Part shown: in pieces, positions 34,352 through 39,335 of the stretch
Layout: every line of letters starts with the position of its first letter
Numbering within the stretch: position 1 is the stretch's first letter
Assembly (NCBI GenBank): GCA_030841105.1
Contig: JAVEDE010000095.1
Span: 124,001-188,000 of the forward strand
Length of the DNA stretch: 64,000 nt
Source of the DNA: Pyrinomonadaceae bacterium
GTDB lineage: Bacteria; Acidobacteriota; Blastocatellia; Pyrinomonadales; Pyrinomonadaceae
Reading direction: 5' to 3'
Notes under the pieces: model-generated
What the model was told of the DNA's origin: nothing
Seen by the model: only the letters and a program-made list of their open reading frames with translations
Databases searched by the model: none
Translations under genes and position numbers: made by a program

Positions 34352-35308
34352 ATGGCGTCTCGAACTTTCATACTCTCAATCGCCCTCGTCGCGCTCACGT
34401 CGTGCGCCGCCGCGTTCGCGCACACGCCCGCGACGGCAAACACGGCGACGATGACGAAAGACACGGATCGCGCGGCGACGCCCAAACCGCTCCCCTTCGA
34501 GCCGGACGAACAACTCACCTACGAAGGCGAGTTCTCCAAGTTGCTGCTGCGCGGCATCAACATCGCCGAGTTCAAATTCACGGTCGAGCGCGCGAAGACG
34601 ACGGCCGCCGTCGCCAGTCCACCCGCGGCTGCGAGTTCAAGCACGGCCACGAGTCCAAGCGCGGCTGTGAATTCAAGTGCGAACACGCCCCCCGCGAACC
34701 TCATCTTCAAAGGCGACGTGCTCGCGCGCGGCTGGTTTCGCAAACTCTTCGGCATAGACTTTCACTACAACACCGAATCCGTCGTCGAGCCGACCTCTCT
34801 CCTCATCCTGAGCAACAGCGTGCGCGACGAGCAGGGCAAACGCCTGCGCACGAGCGAGGCCGTCTTCGACCGCACCCACAATTTGCTGACGTGGACGCTA
34901 CGCAACCCGAACGACCCGCAGGCCGCGCCGCGCGTCGTCACCGCGCCGCTCCAAAACGCCTCGCACGATCTCATCTCCGCCATCTACTTCCTGCGCACCC
35001 AGACGCTCGAACCCGGCCGCCAACTCGAACTCAACATCAGCGACTCCGGCGCGGTCTACCGCATCCCCGTCAAGGTCGGCGCGCGCAAGCGCATGAAGAC
35101 CGTCGTCGGCCGCGTGCAGACCGTCCGCGTTGACATCGAAATCTTCGGCGCGGAACGACTCGTTGACCGCAAGGGAGAGATGACCCTCTGGATCACCGAC
35201 GACGCCCGCCGTCTCCCCGTCCGCGCCCGCATCGAAATAGACATGGGCACGCTCGACATCAACCTCAAAAAAGTCTCCGGCGGCCACACCCCCTCCACGC
35301 GCCCTTAA
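34352..35308 (+). CDS. DUF3108 exported protein
   Basis: A 318-residue protein with a lipoprotein-like signal sequence (IALVALTSCAAAFA; either lipidation at Cys or cleavage at AFA). Residues 50-318 match the DUF3108 pattern: PFEPDEQLTYEGEFSKLLLRGINIAEFKF, HYNTESVVEPTSLLILSN, HDLISAIYFLRTQTLEPG, and the ending LWITDDARRLPVRARIEIDMGTLDINL. A Ser/Thr/Ala-rich insert lies at about 85-110. The family is found in Gram-negative envelopes with no fixed role. It ends the heptose cluster. Confidence 0.82.
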   Translation: MASRTFILSIALVALTSCAAAFAHTPATANTATMTKDTDRAATPKPLPFEPDEQLTYEGEFSKLLLRGINIAEFKFTVERAKTTAAVASPPAAASSSTATSPSAAVNSSANTPPANLIFKGDVLARGWFRKLFGIDFHYNTESVVEPTSLLILSNSVRDEQGKRLRTSEAVFDRTHNLLTWTLRNPNDPQAAPRVVTAPLQNASHDLISAIYFLRTQTLEPGRQLELNISDSGAVYRIPVKVGARKRMKTVVGRVQTVRVDIEIFGAERLVDRKGEMTLWITDDARRLPVRARIEIDMGTLDINLKKVSGGHTPSTRP

Positions 35309-35432: not shown

Positions 35433-35642
35433 ATGAGCGAGACTGAAATTCAATATGTGTCGGACGAGAGCGGCAACCCTGTCGGAGTAATCGTGCCGAT
35501 TGAACTGTGGCGCGAGATCGAGTCAGAACGAGAGACGGCTTACCTGCTAAAAAGTGAGAACATGAAGCGTCGTCTCGCGGAGGCCAAAGACCGACAGGAA
35601 GGAATCCCTTTCGATGAAGCCCGCGAGAAGCTTGGAATTTGA
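35433..35642 (+). CDS. YefM/Phd-like antitoxin
   Basis: A 69-residue acidic protein. The N-terminal half (IQYVSDESGNPVGVIVPIELWREI) resembles the DNA-binding/dimer part of short antitoxins and the C-terminal half (ETAYLLKSENMKRRLAEAKD) resembles the YefM toxin-wrapping helix. It overlaps the downstream YoeB-like gene by 29 bp, which is the usual antitoxin-first order. The frame is intact. Confidence 0.75.
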   Translation: MSETEIQYVSDESGNPVGVIVPIELWREIESERETAYLLKSENMKRRLAEAKDRQEGIPFDEAREKLGI

Positions 35643-35880
35643 TCCTGCCGCGTTTGAAGATTTGGCGTGGTGGATCGAGCAAGATCGAAGTAAGGCGTTA
35701 CGCATAATCAGCCTCATCAAAGACGTGCAGCGCGATCCATTCAAAGGGATCGGGAAGCCCGAACCGCTCAAGCGCGACTTGGCCGGTTGCTGGTAGCGTC
35801 GCATTGATCAGGAACATCGGCTCGTCTATCAGGTTACCGCAGACAAGGTCAGAATCCTCGCGTGTCGTTATCACTACTGA
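35614..35880 (+). pseudogene. YoeB-like mRNA interferase interrupted by an in-frame TAG
   Basis: The 60-residue open frame is the first two thirds of YoeB (DLAWWIEQDRSKALRIISLI, FKGIGKPEPLKRDLAGCW). TAG at 35794-35796 follows, and the same frame continues with the normal YoeB end: RRIDQEHRLVYQVTADKV then RILACRYHY and TGA at 35878. In the family the residue between W and R is Ser, and one change (TCG to TAG) would make this stop. The lost part holds the catalytic Arg and the C-terminal His-Tyr. Without suppression the toxin is dead while its antitoxin stays intact. Confidence 0.85.
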
Positions 35881-35920: not shown

Positions 35921-36430
35921 ATGGATTACAGCATTGACGACATGAACGCCGGTGATTGGGAGCAGGTGCGCTCGATCTATCTTGAGGGCATCGCGACGGG
36001 CGTGGCGACTTTTGAGACGGACGCCCCGGCGTGGGAGAAGTGGGACGCGGGACACTTGCGGAAGGCGCGTTTGGTGGCGCGCGATGTCGGCGGCGCGAGG
36101 GGCGTGATTCTGGGGTGGGCGGCTTTGAGTCGGGTGTCCGACCGCTGCGTCTACGGCGGGGTCGCGGAGGTGAGCGTCTATGTCGGGGAACGCGGGCGCG
36201 GCCGGGGCGTGGGGCGTGCGTTGCTCGACGCGCTCGTCGAAGCGTCCGAGCGAAACGGCATCTGGACGCTACAGGCGGGCGTGTTCCCGGAGAACGCGGC
36301 GAGCGTCAAGTTGCACCTGCGCTGCGGCTTCCGCGAAGTGGGCAGGCGCGAGCGCATCGGGAAGTTGAACGGCGTGTGGCGCGACACCCTGTTGCTTGAA
36401 CGTCGCAGCCGGAACGTCGGGACGAGTTGA
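35921..36430 (+). CDS. GNAT N-acetyltransferase (phosphinothricin acetyltransferase-like)
   Basis: A 169-residue acetyl-CoA-dependent enzyme: IRSIYLEGIATGVATFETDAP-type substrate segment near residues 13-32, VAEVSVYVGERGRGRGVGRALLDALV (motif A, acetyl-CoA binding) and LHLRCGFREVGRRERIGKLNGVWRDTLLLER. This layout fits the PAT/methionine sulfoximine acetyltransferase group, which acetylates amino acid analogues. The ATG at 35921 begins the conserved part; longer starts run through the toxin remnant. Confidence 0.83.
   Translation: MDYSIDDMNAGDWEQVRSIYLEGIATGVATFETDAPAWEKWDAGHLRKARLVARDVGGARGVILGWAALSRVSDRCVYGGVAEVSVYVGERGRGRGVGRALLDALVEASERNGIWTLQAGVFPENAASVKLHLRCGFREVGRRERIGKLNGVWRDTLLLERRSRNVGTS

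Positions 36431-37727: not shown

Positions 37728-39331
<1,604 letters not shown>

Positions 39332-39335
<4 letters not shown>

What the first reader, a model, noticed from the sequence alone, without database searches (positions are those of the whole stretch)
35433..35880. YoeB toxin with an in-frame amber codon next to an intact antitoxin
The toxin frame reads GKPEPLKRDLAGCW, then TAG, then RRIDQEHRLVYQ and ends CRYHY. The residue replaced is normally Ser, one base from TAG. The catalytic C-terminus is therefore cut off, yet it is otherwise perfectly kept, with no further damage. Either the loss is recent, or TAG is suppressed, or it is a sequencing error.
Basis: seen in the sequence. Interest (0 to 1): 0.6.

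Follow-up and report, generated by a model that had tools for sequence, protein, structure and literature searches.

The report
Recently broken YoeB toxin gene
A bacterium related to the Pyrinomonadaceae carries a common toxin-antitoxin pair in which one base change has put a stop codon in the middle of the toxin gene; this looks like an ordinary, recent loss of the toxin and not a new way of reading the genetic code.

Summary
A YoeB-family toxin frame (35614-35880) overlaps an intact antitoxin (35433-35642) and holds one in-frame TAG at 35794-35796. The codon replaces a serine found in all 107 relatives compared. The stop removes five of the six mRNA-contacting residues listed for E. coli YoeB, including the general acid His83. 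A same-genus genome has the same locus in the same place (94% DNA identity over about 20 kb) with an uninterrupted toxin, so the nonsense change is specific to the window's lineage. Apart from the stop, the toxin differs from the sister's by only 3 amino acids against 12 silent changes, so the loss, if real, is recent. Suppression is not supported: 67 tRNA genes were found and none reads UAG, release factor 1 is intact, and 4 of 19 neighbouring genes end in TAG. Broken yoeB copies, by TAA, TGA, TAG or frameshift, occur in several other relatives, so this is the usual decay of a toxin-antitoxin pair. A base-calling error or a minority allele cannot be excluded without reads, but the other neighbouring genes compared are undamaged. 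Ordinary; low interest.

The parts
35433..35642 (+). antitoxin gene, 69 aa, intact; C-terminal part resembles Phd/YefM, N-terminus of a shorter type
   Evidence: PF02604 positions 33-71 at E 1.9e-6, just under the cut-off; same-length partner sits upstream of many relatives' toxins
35614..35880 (+). YoeB-family toxin gene interrupted by one in-frame stop; ATG 35614, alternative TTG start at 35632; terminal TGA 35878-35880
   Evidence: PF06769 119.8 bits over the full profile with 1 TAG inside; TIGR02116 hit on each half
35614..35796 (+). frame actually translated by the standard code: 60-aa truncated toxin
   Evidence: the ORF listing; translation
35794..35796 (+). premature TAG codon where all relatives compared encode Ser
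   Evidence: sister genome has a sense codon here
35797..35877 (+). untranslated remainder of the toxin, holding the counterparts of E. coli YoeB Arg59, Glu63, Arg65, His83 and Tyr84
   Evidence: alignment to E. coli YoeB 2a6q; roles of the residues from PMC3814384

Best explanation
This is a chromosomal YoeB-type toxin-antitoxin module whose toxin was recently inactivated by a single nonsense substitution. The antitoxin frame is intact. The toxin frame now gives a 60-aa fragment that keeps the general base (Glu46 counterpart) but lacks Arg59, Glu63, Arg65, His83 and Tyr84, so it should not cleave mRNA on the ribosome. The antitoxin is left as a solo antitoxin, probably under no strong selection, and the locus should go on to decay. 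Shown here: the stop, the intact syntenic sister, the conserved serine, the lost catalytic residues, the absence of a detectable amber-reading tRNA, and signs of selection up to recently. Inferred: that the fragment is inactive and that the change is real in the population.
For: The stop lies in a frame that otherwise matches the whole family profile. Apart from the stop codon the toxins differ by 12 synonymous and 3 nonsynonymous codons (NG86 dN 0.015, dS 0.26). At the 3 amino-acid differences the commonest residue among relatives (K53, D77, I79) suggests that two arose in the sister and one (V79) in the window lineage. About 26 neutral replacement changes would be expected on the window branch if the gene had been dead throughout, so at most about 18-29% of the branch can be post-loss. 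Broken yoeB copies are found elsewhere: stops TAA, TGA and TAG, or split frames, in G073, G145, G064, G048, G059, L071, L105, L111, L129, L114 and L123. Nonsense decay of chromosomal toxin-antitoxin systems and abundant orphan antitoxins are described (PMC7167474; PMC7192599).
Against: No reads were available, so the stop is known only from a draft assembly (128 contigs, about 89% complete). Purifying selection visible up to now is also what a base error or a minority allele would show. Only one close relative (G001) has the syntenic locus, so the age bound rests on one pair.
Confidence: 0.8

Rival explanations
1. The TAG is a consensus or base-calling error, or a minority allele that won in the assembly; the toxin is intact in most cells.
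For: It is a single substitution in an otherwise well kept gene, the sister has a sense codon there, and there is no read support to inspect.
Against: The other conserved neighbouring genes compared across about 20 kb are open in both genomes; stops seen in that comparison fall in what I judge to be spurious or over-extended frames. The contig therefore does not look error-prone. Frameshifts, the usual long-read error, are absent here.
Confidence: 0.13
2. The organism reads UAG as an amino acid at some rate (suppressor tRNA or programmed readthrough), so full-length toxin is made at a low, controlled level.
For: The region after the stop is conserved (2 replacements against 6 silent changes in 27 codons, counted from the list). 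The codon is followed by C, a context I recall as relatively leaky in bacteria.
Against: 67 tRNA genes found with no CUA anticodon; prfA intact at 518 bits; TAG ends 4 of 19 conserved neighbouring genes and none of the plus-strand genes checked has an inner stop. The sister and the other relatives carry Ser codons at this position, not a conserved TAG. Broken relatives use TAA, TGA and TAG.
Confidence: 0.03
3. The 60-aa fragment still has a job, for example binding the antitoxin and tuning autoregulation or cross-talk with other toxins.
For: The fragment keeps the N-terminal two thirds of the protein and the antitoxin is intact.
Against: No relative examined shows a truncation at this point. 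The genome has no second YoeB match to cross-talk with, though it is incomplete. Losing the C-terminal third probably unfolds the protein (inference).
Confidence: 0.04

Closest known systems
YefM-YoeB (Txe/YoeB) type II toxin-antitoxin systems, E. coli YoeB (PDB 2a6q), M. tuberculosis RelK Rv3358 (PDB 3oei)
   Same: Toxin matches the full family profile with all listed catalytic residues encoded; antitoxin lies just upstream and overlaps the toxin, as in relatives
   Different: Toxin frame is cut by a TAG before five of the six mRNA-contacting residues; antitoxin has a short N-terminus unlike classical YefM
Decaying chromosomal toxin-antitoxin systems and orphan antitoxins (reviewed in PMC7167474; Klebsiella survey PMC7192599)
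   Same: Intact antitoxin next to a toxin disabled by a nonsense change; neighbours unchanged
   Different: No material difference; here it is seen at a very early stage in a probably uncultured acidobacterial lineage

Membership tests
YoeB toxin family (PF06769 / TIGR02116) | Match to the family profile above the curated cut-off | tested here: met
   119.8 bits against cut-off 27 when read through; the translated part alone 66.1 bits
YoeB toxin family (PF06769 / TIGR02116) | Catalytic set Glu46, Arg59, Arg65, His83, Tyr84 in the translated product | tested here: not met
   Only the Glu46 counterpart precedes the stop; the rest lie after it. The gene is a member by descent; its standard-code product is not an active YoeB by this test
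YoeB toxin family (PF06769 / TIGR02116) | Ribosome-dependent mRNA cleavage | not testable with these tools
   Needs an assay
Type II toxin-antitoxin module | Adjacent antitoxin gene of a recognised antitoxin family | tested here: met
   35433-35642; PF02604 E 1.9e-6, just under the cut-off; the same partner type is linked to toxins in many of the relatives compared
Genetic code with UAG as sense, or amber suppressor | tRNA with anticodon CUA, loss of RF1, or in-frame TAG in conserved genes | tested here: not met
   None among 67 tRNAs; RF1 intact; TAG is an ordinary stop in 4 of 19 neighbouring genes. The genome is about 89% complete, so a missing tRNA gene is not fully excluded
Decayed toxin-antitoxin module | Intact orthologue at the same locus in a close relative and an inactivating change here | tested here: met
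   G001:C29

The most novel reading that the evidence does not exclude
Inefficient termination at this TAG lets a trickle of full-length toxin through, so that a nonsense codon acts as a dosage control on a still-working toxin-antitoxin pair.
Probability: 0.02. Interest if true: 0.55.

Novelty: new member of a known kind. Interest (0 to 1): 0.12.

Why it matters
It gives a clean, roughly datable snapshot of the first step in the decay of a toxin-antitoxin pair: the toxin goes first, by one base change, while the antitoxin and the neighbours stay intact. It does not change what is known about such systems. It is also a caution for automatic annotation, which could list a 60-aa YoeB that lacks most of its active site.

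Tried and rejected
Amber suppressor tRNA: the tRNA places found by Infernal were read with ARAGORN, and the weakest by eye; none has CUA. Loss of RF1: rejected. A second, intact YoeB in the genome: none found, and no second copy of the antitoxin. The other same-genus genome G002 has a YoeB, but no DNA similarity to this stretch, so it is not the same locus. Promoter and terminator scans of the module gave nothing. The paper on ccdO157 decay is not held. Programmed readthrough as a conserved feature: rejected, because none of the relatives compared has TAG at this position.

Full report
Observation. The frame 35614-35880 reads as a YoeB toxin with a single TAG at 35794-35796. Each half matches the YoeB profile on its own at adjoining profile positions, and the whole read-through frame scores 119.8 bits against a cut-off of 27. 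The antitoxin 35433-35642 is complete. It ends 29 bases into the toxin frame counted from the ATG, an overlap that recurs in most relatives. The stated coordinates cover the pair; the toxin itself begins at 35614, or at the TTG at 35632.

What is lost. Aligned with E. coli YoeB (PDB 2a6q), the stop stands at the counterpart of residue 57, a serine in all 107 relatives outside the genus pair, written with all six serine codons. Of the residues that contact mRNA in the ribosome-bound structure (Glu46, Arg59, Glu63, Arg65, His83, Tyr84; PMC3814384), only Glu46 is encoded before the stop. In that paper His83 is the general acid, and replacing Tyr84 by alanine abolishes activity. A 60-aa product should therefore be inactive (inference).

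When. A genome of the same genus (G001:C29, 21,132 bases, the same length as the NCBI contig JAUZFQ010000174.1 of a Pyrinomonadaceae MAG) carries the same stretch at 94.3% identity over 19,962 bases. There the toxin is open. Apart from the stop codon the two toxin genes differ by 12 silent and 3 replacement codons (dN 0.015, dS 0.26). The antitoxins differ by 11 silent and 4 replacement codons. Judged by the commonest residue among relatives, two of the three toxin replacements arose in the sister. If the toxin had been dead along the whole window branch, about 26 replacement changes would be expected outside the overlap. With one to three observed, the dead period is at most about 18-29% of the branch at the 95% level. 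This rests on one genome pair and a clock-like split of the divergence.

Not suppression. The genome search found 66 tRNA places and ARAGORN 67 distinct tRNA genes, none with anticodon CUA. RF1 (prfA) is present and open. Of 19 conserved neighbouring genes, TAG ends 4, TAA 5 and TGA 10, and none of the plus-strand genes checked has an inner stop. Relatives with broken yoeB show TAA, TGA and TAG at scattered positions, as well as split frames, which is what random decay gives.

Not clearly an error. No reads can be inspected. The other conserved genes shared by the window and the sister contig across about 20 kb are open in both; the few stops reported in that comparison fall in what I judge to be spurious antisense or over-extended frames. 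A contig with a high error rate would not look like this. A wrong base or a minority allele remains possible at about 13%.

Surroundings. Upstream lies a DUF3108 gene (34352-35308) and downstream a GNAT acetyltransferase gene (about 35921-36430) and a glycoside hydrolase family 57 gene (37728-39335). These are ordinary chromosomal genes and all are shared with the sister, so the module sits at a stable chromosomal site in this genus.

Comparison with the known. Decay of chromosomal toxin-antitoxin systems by nonsense mutation is described (PMC7167474), and orphan antitoxins were found at a median of nine per strain in Klebsiella (PMC7192599). This locus is one more case, at an early stage. The genome as sequenced has no second YoeB and no second copy of the antitoxin. 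Verdict: a true and neatly spotted, but ordinary, pseudogene.

Noticed in passing
window 35433-35642; L014, L063, L064, L066 and others against L100, L104, L113, L115: Two kinds of antitoxin sit before closely related YoeB toxins. One is short (about 67-70 aa, IQYVSDE...VIVPIELW) and lacks the classical Phd N-terminus; the other is a classical Phd/YefM-like protein of about 86-90 aa. Both share a C-terminal ETAYLLxSxxxxxRLL stretch, which suggests a swap of the N-terminal domain. How the short form regulates its promoter is open.
   Followed up: partly
window 35614-35642: The 29-base overlap of antitoxin and toxin frames recurs in most relatives, although several relatives have no Met at the toxin's first position (for example L062, Thr). 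The TTG at 35632 may be the true toxin start.
   Followed up: partly
L097, L080: A second, more distant YoeB-like match lies within about 1 kb of the first in two cyanobacterial contigs; in L097 the second copy carries a TAA.
   Followed up: no
G048:C188:31515-31753, G059:C165:1273-1511, G064:C223:9612-9852: Other yoeB copies in the same family are split between two frames, a further sign that this toxin decays often.
   Followed up: partly
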